The notes under the pieces are model-generated. The model had not been told where the DNA came from, did not search any database, and saw nothing but the letters and a program-made list of their open reading frames with translations. DNA of 64,000 nucleotides from Demequina sp. TMPB413 (GTDB lineage Bacteria > Actinomycetota > Actinomycetes > Actinomycetales > Demequinaceae): positions 1,178,001 through 1,242,000 of the forward strand of contig NZ_CP096184.1 of NCBI RefSeq assembly GCF_020447105.2, written 5' to 3'. The number at the start of each line of letters is the position of its first letter. Position 1 is the stretch's first letter. Of the stretch, positions 28,429 through 39,243 are shown in pieces. Both the position numbers and the translations under genes were made by a program.

Positions 28429-28548
28429 TGTCCGGCAGCGTCCTACTCTCCCACACCATCTCCAGTGCAGTACCATCGGCGCTGAGAGGCTTAGCTTCCG
28501 GGTTCGGAATGGAACCGGGCGTTTCCCTCTCGCTATGACTGCCGAAAC
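28429..28548 (-). rRNA. rrf: 5S ribosomal RNA
   Basis: The minus strand reads GTTTCGGCAGTCATAGCG at the 5' end, has the conserved CCATTCCGAACCCGGAAGCT and GCGCCGATGGTACTGC blocks, and ends GCTGCCGGACATT. The ends pair as helix I. The length of about 120 nt is normal. It is about 80 nt downstream of 23S. Confidence 0.95.
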
Positions 28549-28591
28549 TCTATGGAGTTACTTTCGGTTTCCCGACCGTAATTCGGGAACC

Positions 28592-28605
28592 GCACAGTGG
28601 ACGCG
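28592..28605 (-). other. 3' arm of the 23S processing stem
   Basis: GCACAGTGGACGCG on the plus strand at 28592-28605 is the exact reverse complement of CGCGTCCACTGTGC at 31747-31760. The two arms lie just outside the ends of 23S, so the precursor can form a 14-bp stem suitable for RNase III cleavage. Confidence 0.85.
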
Positions 28606-28630
28606 TAGCAATGCATTTGAAATCTTGAGT

Positions 28631-31730
<3,100 letters not shown>

Positions 31731-31746
31731 AGAAATCAAAGATGCT

Positions 31747-31760
31747 CGCGTCCACTGTGC
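31747..31760 (-). other. 5' arm of the 23S processing stem
   Basis: CGCGTCCACTGTGC (plus strand) is fully complementary to the arm at 28592-28605 on the other side of 23S. It lies directly next to a BoxA-like element, repeating the arrangement seen upstream of 16S. Confidence 0.85.
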
Positions 31761-31900
31761 AGTTCTCAAGTTACGGGCGGGCCCATCTTCCACCTGCGCC
31801 TACGTCGCAATAGCGACGGGGTTCGTCAGGATTCGATGGTCCGGCCGGCCGGTCTTTCGACCTGGCCTGAGGTGGGGCTTACGCCCGATCCCTCAGGACC

Positions 31901-31916
31901 CAACAGTGTGCCATGT
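31901..31916 (-). other. 3' arm of the 16S processing stem
   Basis: The transcript here reads ACATGGCACACTGTTG, which pairs with CAACAGTGTGCCACATGT in the 16S leader (33792-33775), with a two-base bulge. The stem would bring both ends of 16S together for RNase III processing. Confidence 0.83.
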
Positions 31917-32073
31917 AGTGATGTTCTTTCGCGGGAGCGTTCCAGCCCTAAGGCGTACTTGCTCTCGACGCTGTCTGCGTCGCTACCACGTCGATGTTCC
32001 ATCCGTGAGCTCTCGCCGTTCTACGTATGAGAACGATGCGAGGCCTTGGACGCTCCGAAGAGCGCCAAGTGCT

Positions 32074-33603
<1,530 letters not shown>

Positions 33604-35503: not shown

Positions 35504-36628
35504 TCACAGCGGCAGGTCAACGCTCGCGACGGTCGCTGCGGCGAGGCGGGAAGGGTCGGGGACGGCCGCGAGCCCCGGTGACTCCGGGATCATGATGTGG
35601 CCGTCGACCAGATCGAAGGGCTCGGTGATGTCCTCCTTGTAGAAGCGTCCGGAAGCGGAAATGTCTCCTGTGAGGGTGAATCCAGGAAGGCCCGCGAGCG
35701 CCGCGTTCGCCGCGCGTCCGATGCCCGTCTCGAGCATTCCTCCACACCACACCGCCACGCCGTGCGCGCGCGAGATGTCATGGATCCGCCTGGCCTCTAG
35801 GTAGCCACCTACGCGCGAAGGCTTGATGTTGATGACCTGAGCGGCGCCCAGCTGGATGGCATCGGCCGCCTTGGTGGCCGACGTCACGGACTCGTCGAGG
35901 CACATCGGCGTGCGCATCCGGCGGGCGAGTTCGGCATGCTGGCGCATGTCGTCCTCTCCTAACGGTTGTTCGATGAGCAGCAGGTTGAACTCGTCGAGCC
36001 TCGCCAAGTGCGCCGCGTCGGCGAGCGTGTAGGCGGCGTTCGCGTCCACCTGGAGTGGAACGTCTGGGTGCGCGTCGCGAACTGCCCGCACCGGCGCGAT
36101 GTCCCAGCCCGGTTGGATCTTGAGTTTGATGCGCTGGTAGCCCTCGGCGAGGTACGCGTCGACCGCGTCCATCAGTCGCGGGATCGAGTCCTGAATTCCG
36201 ACGGAGACGCCGGAGGGCACCCTGTCAACGGTGACGCCCAGGTAGTCCTTGAAGCTGAGACCCGCCGCGCGCAACTGGGCGTCGAGCACCGCCATCTCCA
36301 ACATTGCCTTGGCCATCCTGTGGCCCACGATCTTCTCCAGGTGCTCGGAGACCGTCTCCGCTGTCAGCGGTCCGACCGCCGACGCGGCCACGAGTCGCGG
36401 CAGCAGGTGCCTCGCGGTCACGTCGATCACGCCCTCGGTGTACTCCTCTGAATAGACGGGCTCGCTCAGCGCACCGCACTCCGCCCAACCCGTCACCTCT
36501 TGACCGTCAACGGCGGCCGTCAACTCCATGACCAGGACTCGTCGCTCCGTCTGGGTGGAGAAGGACGTGGTGAACGGCGTCACGAGTGGAAGCGCAAGGG
36601 TGTGCAATTGGACGCGGCGGATTCTCAC
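35504..36628 (-). CDS. N-acylamino acid racemase / o-succinylbenzoate synthase family (enolase superfamily)
   Basis: The 374-residue protein has the muconate-lactonising-subgroup active site: the KLK pair (Lys168, Lys170), Asp195 in QVDAN, Glu220 in LIEQP, Asp245 in CLDES and Lys269 in NIKPSRVGG. Its overall sequence resembles the bifunctional NAAAR/OSBS of Amycolatopsis. No other menaquinone gene is nearby, while a GNAT and an M20 hydrolase gene precede it with overlapping codons. I therefore read it as a racemase of N-acylated (probably N-succinyl) amino acids rather than MenC. It starts at GTG 36628 (GTGA overlap). OSBS activity remains possible. Confidence 0.85.
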   Translation of the reverse strand: MRIRRVQLHTLALPLVTPFTTSFSTQTERRVLVMELTAAVDGQEVTGWAECGALSEPVYSEEYTEGVIDVTARHLLPRLVAASAVGPLTAETVSEHLEKIVGHRMAKAMLEMAVLDAQLRAAGLSFKDYLGVTVDRVPSGVSVGIQDSIPRLMDAVDAYLAEGYQRIKLKIQPGWDIAPVRAVRDAHPDVPLQVDANAAYTLADAAHLARLDEFNLLLIEQPLGEDDMRQHAELARRMRTPMCLDESVTSATKAADAIQLGAAQVINIKPSRVGGYLEARRIHDISRAHGVAVWCGGMLETGIGRAANAALAGLPGFTLTGDISASGRFYKEDITEPFDLVDGHIMIPESPGLAAVPDPSRLAAATVASVDLPL

Positions 36629-37422
36629 AGTGCCTCCATCAGGTAGCGGCCATCCCGGCCGACGGCGGTGGGGCGCCAGCCTGCGGCCCACCTTTCCACC
36701 ATGGCCTCTCGCAAGGCCATTCTCCAGCGGGCGGCCAACTCGAGGTGGTCGCGACGCATGGCTTCGATATCGGCTGGCACAACCACAGACACGGCCGACG
36801 CGCCGGATGGGACGGGGCCGACGACGGGTTCGAGGGCCTCGCCGACGCTCAGAATGGCTGGCGCTGGCTGGGGGTCGCGGGGCGCGGGGGGCAGGGGCGC
36901 GTCGAGCGCCCACCGCGCGAGGATGCGATCGGATCCCTGGCCTGCGTTCACACCGTCTGTCATCGCACCGTAGAAATCGACTAAGTACTCGTCGAGCGTC
37001 GCACCGAGCCTGCGCACATTGAACGCCGCGTTGCGCGCCACGAGGGGGTCAAAGGTCCACGTGACAGTCCCCACGTCGCGGTCTAGGCACCACGCGCGTT
37101 GGTGGAGCTTCATCGCCGTGCCGACGCCAGTACCTGCGAGGCCAGGGACGACGCCAGCCACGTGAGAGTGCATCGCGGCGTGCGCCGGTGGCCCAAAGAA
37201 TCCTGCGGTCGCTCCGACGATGCGTTCGCCGACGAAGGCGCCGGCGACGTAGCCGCCCGCGTGAGACAGCGCAGTGAGCAGGTGGCGCTCCATCACCGGC
37301 TCGTTCCACACCGCGCGCCACACCTCAGTGGCTCGTTCCAACTCGCTTCCCGCGAGCACGCGCGCCTCGACGCCCGCCGCCGTCGCGGCCTCGTCGTAGT
37401 CCGCCCACGCGTCGACGCTCAT
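36625..37422 (-). CDS. GNAT-type N-acyltransferase of the racemase cassette
   Basis: The 265-residue protein has a GNAT-like core with GVVPGLAGTGVGTAMKLHQR (acetyl/acyl-CoA loop) and the stretch VTWTFDPLVARNAAFNVRRLG, which is characteristic of the large GNAT proteins encoded next to NSAR/OSBS enzymes. In Geobacillus the comparable gene product N-succinylates D-amino acids. Start and stop overlap both neighbours (ATGA and GTGA). Substrate choice is inferred only from context. Confidence 0.78.
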   Translation of the reverse strand: MSVDAWADYDEAATAAGVEARVLAGSELERATEVWRAVWNEPVMERHLLTALSHAGGYVAGAFVGERIVGATAGFFGPPAHAAMHSHVAGVVPGLAGTGVGTAMKLHQRAWCLDRDVGTVTWTFDPLVARNAAFNVRRLGATLDEYLVDFYGAMTDGVNAGQGSDRILARWALDAPLPPAPRDPQPAPAILSVGEALEPVVGPVPSGASAVSVVVPADIEAMRRDHLELAARWRMALREAMVERWAAGWRPTAVGRDGRYLMEAL

Positions 37423-38579
37423 GACGATTCCCCGGCGAGTAGGTCAGCCACCAGCAGGGCCAGCAGCGCGGTGCGAGGGACGATATGGTCAATCAAGACG
37501 TGTTCGTCGTCCGCGTGAGCGCCTCCGCCAACGGCACCCAGCCCGTCGAGCGTCGGCACCCCCAGGCCGGCCGTGAAGTTGCCGTCAGATGCGCCCCCCA
37601 CCGCGATCTCGCCCAGGGCCTGTATCCCGACCGCTGGGGCAAGTGCCGCAGCCTTCGAATAGAGGGCGGCCGCGCTCGCCCGCTCCATGACCGGCCTGTT
37701 GATGCCGCCGGTGACTCGGAGCTGCGCGCCAGGCAGCACGGGAACGAGGGCGCTCATCGCGTCATCGACGCGGCGTTGCTCCGCCGCCGTCGTCGCCCGC
37801 ACGTCCACGTCAACACGGGCGTGTGCCGGCACGGTGTTGACCGTCGTGTCAGCCATCAACCTGGTGGGAGTGACCGTTGTGCCCCGAGCGGCATCGGCCA
37901 GTGCCGCAATGAGCGGAATCTGATGCGCGATTTCGATGGTCGCGTTGACGCCCTTCTCTGGTTCGAGTCCAGCGTGAGCGGCGGCGCCCATCGCTTCCAC
38001 CGAGTACAGGGAGACGCCCTTGCGCGCCGTTTTGAGTGCGCCTCCCGGGCCCGCCGCCTCAAGCACCAGGACCGCTTCGCAACCCGCCGCCTCCGCCTCG
38101 AGTAGAGCGCGCGACGTGACAGAGCCAATTTCCTCGTCACCCGTCACCAGCAGCGTCACGCCGTCCACAGCGTGCGCGCCGCTCGTCTCGACCAGCGCGC
38201 ACAGCGCATGAACGGCCTGCAACAGCCCCACGATCATGTCGAAGCAGCCCGGCCCACGCATCACGCCGTCGCTCACGGTGAACGGCAAGCGTTCCAGGGT
38301 GCCGAGCGGCCACACCGTGTCGTGGTGGGCCAACAGCAGTACCCGTGCTGGTCCGTCGCCCCACCGCCACCGCACGTGGGGGCAACCGTCGACCACGATG
38401 CGCTCGGCGTCGGCCGCGATGCCCGCTTGGGCGAAGCGCTCCCCCACCACCCTGGCCACCACGTCGGCGCTTGCCAGGACCGCCTTGCGATCGTCGGAGG
38501 GAGACTCCTGCCTGATCAGCGTCCCCGCATCGTCAAGCAACGGGCCTAGGCGCGCGATGCTGGCGTCGACGATGCTCAC
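37419..38579 (-). CDS. M20-family metallohydrolase (N-acyl-amino acid deacylase candidate)
   Basis: The 386-residue protein has the M20 metal-binding and catalytic pattern: LLLAHHDTVWPLG (His and Asp ligands), RGPGCFDMIVGL, TGDEEIGS (catalytic Glu and ligand) and a final GGGAHADDEH. A dimerisation domain lies between. It is the first gene of the three-gene cassette and would release the acyl group from the L-isomer. GTG 38579 is used because CACGAT (38591-38586) ends 7 nt before it. Carboxypeptidase G2-like activity is the main alternative. Confidence 0.82.
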   Translation of the reverse strand: MSIVDASIARLGPLLDDAGTLIRQESPSDDRKAVLASADVVARVVGERFAQAGIAADAERIVVDGCPHVRWRWGDGPARVLLLAHHDTVWPLGTLERLPFTVSDGVMRGPGCFDMIVGLLQAVHALCALVETSGAHAVDGVTLLVTGDEEIGSVTSRALLEAEAAGCEAVLVLEAAGPGGALKTARKGVSLYSVEAMGAAAHAGLEPEKGVNATIEIAHQIPLIAALADAARGTTVTPTRLMADTTVNTVPAHARVDVDVRATTAAEQRRVDDAMSALVPVLPGAQLRVTGGINRPVMERASAAALYSKAAALAPAVGIQALGEIAVGGASDGNFTAGLGVPTLDGLGAVGGGAHADDEHVLIDHIVPRTALLALLVADLLAGESS

Positions 38580-38613: not shown

Positions 38614-39243
38614 TTACCAGGCGTCAGGAAGCCGCGTGTCACCGCTCACCACGGCGTCGGCGGCGTGCTCGGTTCCCTCCTCATACAGAAACTCGTCCTC
38701 CGCCTGGTGCCACGCCTCCCAATGGGGACGCAGTGCCTCGCCGTCGCGCTCGATGCCGCGACGAAGCCGCTCGGGCCACGGCGCGTCGACATAGATGAGC
38801 ATGCTCGCGTACTGTCGCGCGGCGCGCTGGCCCACGCCGACCCCCTCGATGATGATGTACGGGCGTTGCGGGACGCGGATTGTGTGGGTGCGTTCCTCAA
38901 GCGACCAGTCCCACATCGCGAACTCGCCGCCCACCCCTCTCGACAGCGGTTCGAGGATCTGGTCGACCAAGACGCGGTCGAGGATGGGAAGCCCTCCCCA
39001 GCCCTCGTACATGTCATCGCCGTGGATGATCTGGACCGGCGCCGAGGCCGGGGTGCGGTGGTCAGGATCGTAGGTTCCCGAGCCCGCCGACTCCGCACCA
39101 CCGAGTGCCACAGACAGCCGATTTGCCAGCGTCGTCTTGCCGCTTCCTGCAGGCCCGTCGATGAGGACGACGCGGGTGCCGCCAATCAAGGGTTCGCGGC
39201 GTAGCAGCAGGGATACCAGGTCCGACAAGGATGGCTGGGACAT
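38614..39243 (-). CDS. P-loop kinase, uridine kinase-like
   Basis: The 209-residue protein has Walker A LIDGPAGSGKTTLANRL near residue 28, HGDDMYEGW in the position of the substrate-binding Asp of nucleoside kinases, and IIIEGVGVGQRA. The fold matches small uridine kinase-like proteins of actinobacteria. The true substrate is unknown. It is divergent from the YbaK-like gene and upstream of the M20 gene. Confidence 0.8.
   Translation of the reverse strand: MSQPSLSDLVSLLLRREPLIGGTRVVLIDGPAGSGKTTLANRLSVALGGAESAGSGTYDPDHRTPASAPVQIIHGDDMYEGWGGLPILDRVLVDQILEPLSRGVGGEFAMWDWSLEERTHTIRVPQRPYIIIEGVGVGQRAARQYASMLIYVDAPWPERLRRGIERDGEALRPHWEAWHQAEDEFLYEEGTEHAADAVVSGDTRLPDAW

What the first reader, a model, noticed from the sequence alone, without database searches (positions are those of the whole stretch)
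35504..38579. Overlapping M20 deacylase - GNAT acyltransferase - NAAAR/OSBS cassette: candidate D- to L-amino acid conversion pathway
Seen: three genes joined by ATGA and GTGA overlaps behind one leaderless promoter, with the complete NAAAR/OSBS active site (Lys168/Lys170, Asp195, Glu220, Asp245, Lys269). Known: in Geobacillus an N-succinyltransferase of the GNAT superfamily, an N-succinylamino-acid racemase and an M20 hydrolase together convert D- to L-amino acids. Inference: this cassette does the same here, perhaps to salvage peptidoglycan D-amino acids, and the enolase is not MenC.
Basis: partly seen in the sequence, partly recalled or inferred. Interest (0 to 1): 0.72.

Follow-up and report, generated by a model that had tools for sequence, protein, structure and literature searches.

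The report
D- to L-amino acid conversion cassette
Three overlapping genes, kept as one block within their bacterial genus, encode a GNAT-fold protein, an enolase-family protein of the N-succinylamino acid racemase type and an M20-family hydrolase, which together are predicted to turn D-amino acids irreversibly into L-amino acids; a separate gene in the same genome is predicted to serve the menaquinone step for which such enzymes are often named.

Summary
In detail: M20 hydrolase, GNAT-fold protein and NSAR/OSBS-type enolase overlap by ATGA and GTGA on the minus strand, with the full enolase active site. The leaderless promoter was not confirmed. In 21 of 21 congeneric carriers examined the three genes sit together near tyrS; 17 of 17 non-carriers lack M20 and enolase there. 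In 80 actinobacterial loci the GNAT gene lies directly upstream of the enolase in 73. This is a new member of the known Geobacillus-type pathway; acyl donor, stereochemistry and activity are untested. Three Planotetraspora have MenB but no PRK02901-type MenC, so a dual role is possible there.

The parts
37419..38579 (-). M20-family amidohydrolase, predicted N-succinyl-L-amino acid desuccinylase (386 aa, GTG start)
   Evidence: PF01546 83.2 bits and PF07687 45.3 bits; nearest solved structures carboxypeptidase G2 7m6u 1.4e-30 and 1cg2 3.3e-30; below the NCBIfam cut-offs for ArgE/DapE-type models; H85, D87, D114, E149, E150, E174, H355 invariant in 41 of 41 homologues
36625..37422 (-). GNAT-fold acyltransferase, predicted D-amino acid N-succinyltransferase (265 aa)
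35504..36628 (-). NSAR/OSBS-subfamily enolase, predicted N-succinylamino acid racemase (374 aa, GTG start)
   Evidence: Amycolatopsis N-acylamino acid racemase 1sja E 1.1e-133; K168 K170 D195 E220 D245 K269 R272 invariant in 80 of 80; TIGR01928 294.6 bits, cut-off 200.65
37419..37422 (-). ATGA overlap of M20 stop and GNAT start
   Evidence: sequence
36625..36628 (-). GTGA overlap of GNAT stop and enolase start
   Evidence: sequence; 4-bp overlap at this junction in 44 of 61 related loci with both ORFs called

Best explanation
The three overlapping genes encode a GNAT-fold protein, an NSAR/OSBS-type enolase and an M20-family hydrolase that together likely form a one-way D- to L-amino acid conversion pathway. 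Predicted steps: the GNAT enzyme puts a succinyl group from succinyl-CoA on the alpha-amino group of a D-amino acid; the enolase, with lysines 170 and 269 as the acid/base pair (the alignment places them on Amycolatopsis K163 and K263; roles recalled) and a divalent metal held by D195, E220 and D245, would take the alpha-proton off and put it back, racemising the N-succinyl amino acid; the M20 enzyme would hydrolyse only the N-succinyl-L form, giving free L-amino acid and succinate and pulling the reaction forward at the cost of one succinyl-CoA. Shown: gene order, overlaps, folds or families, conserved residues, a separate MenC gene, block-wise presence in the genus, and a peptide-import and peptidase neighbourhood in relatives. 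Inferred: donor, stereochemistry, substrates, and that the D-amino acids come from imported peptides.
For: Separate MenC in a men cluster with menA, menE-like, menB and menD genes; PRK02901 MenC over cut-off in 40 of 41 genomes searched in the genus, own included, the other having a split match of 267 bits, while the cassette enolase was found in only 19 of 36 congeners. Block-wise: 21 of 21 congeneric carriers examined have M20, GNAT and enolase together near tyrS; 17 of 17 non-carriers lack M20 and enolase there, one keeps a lone GNAT gene. Eight of eight Streptomyces carriers searched have no MenB over cut-off, so the enzyme is unlikely to be a classical MenC there. Of 28 carriers with MenB over cut-off, 25 have a PRK02901 MenC too. 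Catalytic residues invariant in 80 of 80, M20 metal-site pattern in 41 of 41; distances of the three proteins correlate (r 0.80, 0.70, 0.82; 0 of 999 permutations reach each; shared descent of the hosts alone can give such values). R272, at the place of Amycolatopsis R266 (a paper title names R266 as a determinant of racemase specificity, reference list), is Arg in 80 of 80 and Pro in the genome's own MenC. Best VIA rows for the GNAT model are alpha-amino N-acetyltransferases (RimI, Ard1, Naa10; many rows tied, and Foldseek's own order puts other GNATs first). Neighbourhood: listed hydrolase classes 29 of 39 cassette loci vs 0 of 39 control loci from the same genomes; OppD/F 30 vs 2; PucR 25 vs 0.
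Against: No activity data. The nearest characterised enzyme (Amycolatopsis) also has OSBS activity, and a review states its biologically relevant function was found to be OSBS (PMC4215206, passages). NCBIfam's TIGR01928 names the protein o-succinylbenzoate synthase above cut-off. M20 is found in only 41 of 80 fetched stretches; in the rest it may lie elsewhere or another hydrolase may act. Seven of 80 loci have no GNAT hit, and of the two carriers found in other families of the order one has M20 and enolase but no GNAT hit, the other the enolase alone. Three Planotetraspora have MenB without a PRK02901 MenC, so OSBS activity may be used there. In this genome the cassette has no peptide genes beside it; two family-5 binding proteins lie elsewhere and no M19 dipeptidase was found; the other classes were not searched for in it. 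Succinyl-CoA versus acetyl-CoA cannot be told from the sequence.
Confidence: 0.78

Rival explanations
1. Bifunctional NSAR/OSBS: the enolase racemises N-succinyl amino acids and also backs up menaquinone synthesis as an o-succinylbenzoate synthase. (Overlaps with the best explanation.)
For: Most similar to the promiscuous Amycolatopsis NSAR/OSBS; TIGR01928 menC over cut-off; three Planotetraspora carry two cassettes each plus menB, menD and menE-like genes but no PRK02901 MenC.
Against: Own genome and 40 of 41 genus genomes searched have a dedicated MenC over cut-off; of the 17 of 36 congeners without the enolase, 16 have that MenC over cut-off and one a split match; Streptomyces carriers searched lack MenB over cut-off.
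Confidence: 0.12
2. Same cycle with a different acyl group or direction: for example N-acetyl instead of N-succinyl, or use of external N-acyl-D-amino acids taken up from outside.
For: The family also racemises N-acetyl amino acids (PMC8142540 table passage); a GNAT fold says nothing of the acyl donor; M20 is nearest to carboxypeptidase G2, not to a named desuccinylase.
Against: In that table Amycolatopsis enzymes show kcat/Km of 42,000 and 26,429 for N-succinyl-phenylglycine against 1,111 and 350 for N-acetyl-methionine (different side chains and sources); a cell that only used external N-acyl amino acids would not need the GNAT gene, which is adjacent in 73 of 80 loci.
Confidence: 0.15
3. 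The enolase is simply MenC and the neighbours are unrelated.
For: Public annotation names homologues menC; TIGR01928 over cut-off.
Against: Dedicated MenC in the men cluster; patchy, block-wise occurrence; GNAT conserved beside it in 73 of 80 loci, beside a homologue on a Priestia plasmid and two genes away on a Deinococcus plasmid.
Confidence: 0.03
4. The cassette belongs to arginine biosynthesis, with the M20 protein as an ArgE-type deacetylase.
For: In the genus it lies downstream of argH (seen in 19 of 21 carriers).
Against: The operon has argJ, so ArgE is not needed (established pathway knowledge); M20 scores 54.2 bits against the ArgE/DapE model with cut-off 217.6; none of the 79 fetched loci outside the genus has a match to argG, argH, argR, tyrS or the kinase-like gene at E<=1e-15.
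Confidence: 0.02

Closest known systems
Geobacillus kaustophilus D- to L-amino acid pathway: GNAT N-succinyltransferase, NSAR, L-desuccinylase (Sakai et al. 2006 Biochemistry 45:4455; title seen reference list, content recalled; use of a G. kaustophilus NSAR and L-succinylase is described in PMC7431475 passages)
   Same: Same three enzyme classes; NSAR of the same subfamily.
   Different: Another phylum; here overlapping in the order M20-GNAT-enolase. No Geobacillus sequence was fetched, so orthology of its GNAT and M20 to these was not tested; the one Bacillaceae GNAT seen (Priestia plasmid) is 27% identical.
Amycolatopsis N-acylamino acid racemase / NSAR/OSBS (1sja, 4a6g, 7s8w)
   Same: Nearest solved structure, aligned over residues 1-370, same active site. 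A. kentuckyensis has a close homologue of it (4.3e-200 to 1sja) in an M20-GNAT-enolase cassette plus a separate PRK02901 MenC match (446 bits, running over one stop codon).
   Different: The Amycolatopsis enzyme is described in a review as biologically an OSBS; here context says NSAR.
Deinococcus radiodurans NSAR (1r0m) and its plasmid MP1 homologue
   Same: The MP1 homologue lies two genes from a GNAT gene of the same family (35% identical to the window's).
   Different: Two ABC binding-protein genes lie between; no M20 gene is annotated in the stretch shown. The MP1 protein is a relative of 1r0m (525 bits over residues 10-373) and was not shown to be the crystallised protein.
Dedicated actinobacterial MenC (PRK02901)
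   Same: Enolase superfamily, same metal-binding acids in the alignment.
   Different: 64.9 bits against a cut-off of 288; 25% identity to the genome's own MenC.

Membership tests
NSAR/OSBS subfamily of the enolase superfamily | KxK and second Lys, three metal-binding acids, over-cut-off subfamily profile | tested here: met
   K168, K170, D195, E220, D245, K269 invariant in 80 of 80; TIGR01928 294.6 bits vs 200.65
NSAR/OSBS subfamily of the enolase superfamily | second-shell Arg equivalent to Amycolatopsis R266 (significance known from a paper title only) | tested here: met
   R272 in 80 of 80
[quoted passage not shown]
   needs an assay
Dedicated MenC (PRK02901) | over-cut-off match and place in a men cluster | tested here: not met
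   64.9 vs 288 bits; another protein fills that place
D- to L-amino acid conversion pathway (Geobacillus type) | GNAT, NSAR and M20 genes clustered | tested here: met
D- to L-amino acid conversion pathway (Geobacillus type) | D-specific N-succinyltransferase and L-specific desuccinylase activities | not testable with these tools
   needs an assay
D- to L-amino acid conversion pathway (Geobacillus type) | orthology of GNAT and M20 to the Geobacillus proteins | not tested
   no Geobacillus sequence was fetched
GNAT superfamily | GNAT fold | tested here: met
GNAT superfamily | Pfam PF00583 at curated cut-off | tested here: inconclusive
   17.4 bits vs 20.7; some of the 120 listed homologues carry PF00583, most have no Pfam domain
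M20 peptidase family | Pfam M20 plus conserved metal-site pattern | tested here: met
   83.2 bits vs 24.6; seven residues invariant in 41 of 41; their roles are recalled
ArgE/DapE deacylases | over-cut-off NCBIfam match | tested here: not met
   TIGR01910 54.2 vs 217.6 bits

The most novel reading that the evidence does not exclude
Actinobacteria carry a widespread peptide D-amino acid salvage island: an oligopeptide importer, a serine peptidase that fuses a prolyl-oligopeptidase domain to a D-aminopeptidase-like S12 domain (or an M19 dipeptidase), the GNAT-NSAR-M20 cycle and a PucR-type regulator together take up D-residue peptides and return L-amino acids; the Amycolatopsis 'N-acylamino acid racemase', long a model of a promiscuous MenC, works natively in this island and not in menaquinone synthesis.
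Probability: 0.5. Interest if true: 0.62.

Novelty: new member of a known kind. Interest (0 to 1): 0.45.

Why it matters
The enzyme family is a standard model of promiscuity, and members can be annotated menC, as the Deinococcus and Priestia plasmid homologues are. Block-wise presence in the genus, a separate MenC in most carriers searched and a peptide-uptake neighbourhood in relatives give a line of evidence on native function that does not rest on kinetics. If right, 'o-succinylbenzoate synthase' labels on such cassette enolases in actinobacteria are wrong, and a GNAT family often without a Pfam match gains a predicted substrate.

Tried and rejected
Arginine-pathway role (ArgE-like M20): rejected on argJ, profile scores and absence of arg neighbours in the 79 loci outside the genus. 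Plain MenC: rejected. Leaderless promoter: not confirmed; the scan covers sigma-70 consensus only, and the stretch just upstream of the GTG offers CACGAT at most as a weak -10 (my reading). Regulation is left open. Sequence search of the PDB with the GNAT protein gave nothing at E<=0.1; the fold search did. The C-terminal stretch of the GNAT model, residues 178-265, is barely covered by the rows and was not modelled alone. A third, weak enolase-family match in the genome (32.9 bits) was fetched (L007) but not identified. Other MenC families than PRK02901 were not searched for in the carriers. Literature: the listings of searches of an open-access library showed no title or abstract start that describes the peptide-importer neighbourhood; two of the relevant papers asked for were not held, so no claim of being unpublished is made. 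Of papers, only passages or reference lists were seen, or listings.

Limits of the neighbourhood test: the class representatives were taken from cassette loci, and the control loci (36 around enoyl-CoA hydratase-like genes, 3 around menB, same 39 genomes, 642,974 vs 628,561 bases) were chosen by me; the effect is weaker in the other 41 of the 80 loci, which had no control of their own (OppD/F 19 of 41, any listed hydrolase 13 of 41). Gene calls were made with a home-made codon-usage caller, so absences of ORFs are soft; cassette genes themselves were counted by tblastn. S12 representatives score best, below cut-off, against class C beta-lactamase, then an esterase-type hydrolase and AmpH; D-aminopeptidase comes lower, so a D-specific action is inference.

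Full report

It is not the only menC. The same genome has a dedicated MenC (PRK02901, 311 bits, cut-off 288) between menB and menD, with menA and a menE-like gene near. The cassette enolase reaches 64.9 bits against that family. Among 41 genus genomes (own included) 40 hold the dedicated MenC over cut-off and one, G026, a split match of 267 bits, while the cassette enolase was found in 19 of 36 congeners. A third enolase-family match in the genome is weak (32.9 bits) and was not identified. The genus is inferred to be Demequina: the contig of L008, a named Demequina record, has the same length, 175,884 bases, as contig 16 of congener G027.

It comes and goes as one block in the genus. In 21 of 21 congeneric carriers whose region was fetched, M20, GNAT and enolase lie together near tyrS. 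A small kinase-like gene, before or after them, and argH upstream were seen in 19 of 21 (two contigs are too short). In 17 of 17 non-carriers examined the kinase-like gene and tyrS are there without M20 or enolase; one of them (G062) keeps a lone GNAT gene. One further carrier, G012, has the enolase cut off by a contig end, and one non-carrier, G018, gave no tyrS match; neither was fetched. Two carriers in other families of the order fit less well: G042 showed M20 and enolase but no GNAT hit, G056 the enolase alone.

It is widespread. The GNAT gene is directly upstream on the same strand in 73 of 80; M20 is in the fetched stretch in 41 of 80, directly upstream of GNAT in 38. The seven enolase residues K168, K170, D195, E220, D245, K269 and R272 are invariant in 80 of 80, and seven M20 metal-site pattern residues in 41 of 41. 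Distances of the three proteins correlate (r 0.70-0.82, none of 999 permutations as high), which shared descent of the hosts can also give. The GNAT family reaches other phyla: on a Priestia megaterium plasmid it lies beside, and on the Deinococcus radiodurans plasmid MP1 two genes away from, an NSAR-type gene annotated menC.

Menaquinone genes in carriers. MenB is over cut-off in 28 of 39; all 8 Streptomyces searched lack it, in line with the futalosine pathway first found in a Streptomyces (PMC3914697 passages). The other three without it are A. kentuckyensis, where the match is split over two contigs, an Actinomadura and an assembled metagenome genome of Nocardioides. PRK02901 MenC is over cut-off in 27 of 39, and in 25 of the 28 MenB carriers. 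The three exceptions are Planotetraspora species. Each has two M20-GNAT-enolase cassettes, one beside an M19 dipeptidase gene and one beside S12, PucR and importer genes, and menB, menD and menE-like genes. There an NSAR/OSBS enzyme may serve both pathways, unless a MenC of another family, not searched for, is present. Amycolatopsis kentuckyensis, whose enolase is a close homologue of the classic Amycolatopsis enzyme (4.3e-200 to 1sja), has the full cassette with S12, binding-protein and importer genes and a separate PRK02901 MenC match at 446 bits, running over one stop codon. This speaks against OSBS as the sole native role stated in PMC4215206 (passage).

Where the D-amino acids may come from. 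Neighbour classes were named by Pfam and NCBIfam: OppD/F ATPases, DppB permeases, family-5 binding proteins, S12 (PF00144) hydrolases with below-cut-off similarity to class C beta-lactamase, AmpH and D-aminopeptidase, S9 peptidases, often fused to S12 (15 ORFs in 14 of 80 loci), M19 dipeptidases, M24 peptidases, amidohydrolases and PucR-type regulators with a below-cut-off match to AdeR. Against 39 control loci from the same genomes: OppD/F 30 vs 2, PucR 25 vs 0, S12 22 vs 0, DppB 15 vs 0, S9 14 vs 0, binding protein 11 vs 1, M19 6 vs 0, Bla2 4 vs 0, amidohydrolase 3 vs 0, M24 3 vs 0; any S9, S12, M19, amidohydrolase or Bla2 class 29 vs 0. The representatives were themselves taken from cassette loci. 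In the other 41 loci, without a control of their own, the figures are lower: OppD/F 19, any listed hydrolase 13. Listed hydrolases or OppD/F genes are near 37 of 41 cassettes with M20 and 21 of 39 without. In the window's own genome the cassette has no such neighbours; two family-5 binding proteins lie elsewhere and no M19 was found; the other classes were not searched for there. So the peptide source is an inference from relatives.

How it most likely works. GNAT N-succinylates D-amino acids, the enolase racemises the N-succinyl amino acid, M20 hydrolyses the L-form: an irreversible D- to L-conversion paid for by one succinyl-CoA, as described for Geobacillus (Sakai 2006; title seen, content recalled). 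The acid/base lysines are likely K170 and K269, which align with K163 and K263 of the Amycolatopsis enzyme (alignment; roles recalled). Donor, stereochemistry and substrates are not shown by any search. Succinyl is favoured over acetyl because tabulated kcat/Km for N-succinyl-phenylglycine with Amycolatopsis enzymes is well above that for N-acetyl-methionine (PMC8142540, table passage), with different side chains.

Verdict. It is a new member of a known pathway; what is added is the refutation test, the block-wise presence in the genus and the peptide-related neighbourhood in relatives.

Noticed in passing
L221, L222, L223 (Planotetraspora) and menB regions L224-L226: Planotetraspora genomes carry two M20-GNAT-NSAR cassettes each and menB/menD/menE-like genes without a PRK02901 MenC; which enzyme supplies o-succinylbenzoate is open.
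   Followed up: partly
L036:2580-5915, one of 15 such ORFs in 14 of 80 loci: Large ORFs that fuse an S9 prolyl-oligopeptidase domain (below-cut-off match to Dpp5) to an S12 beta-lactamase-like domain, near the cassette.
   Followed up: partly
L178 (G062), between the kinase-like gene and tyrS: A lone GNAT homologue (45% identity) at the place where carriers have the whole cassette; possibly a remnant.
   Followed up: no
window 28430-33603: 16S, 23S and 5S rRNA genes directly downstream of tyrS on the minus strand.
   Followed up: no
window 38614-39243: A small kinase-like protein (PRK06547, 125 bits, below the cut-off of 173) lies upstream of tyrS in 17 of 17 non-carriers examined and in 19 of 21 carriers, before or after the cassette.
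   Followed up: partly
L160 (Deinococcus radiodurans MP1) and L161 (Priestia megaterium plasmid): NSAR-type genes near GNAT genes are annotated menC in public records; possibly misannotations.
   Followed up: partly
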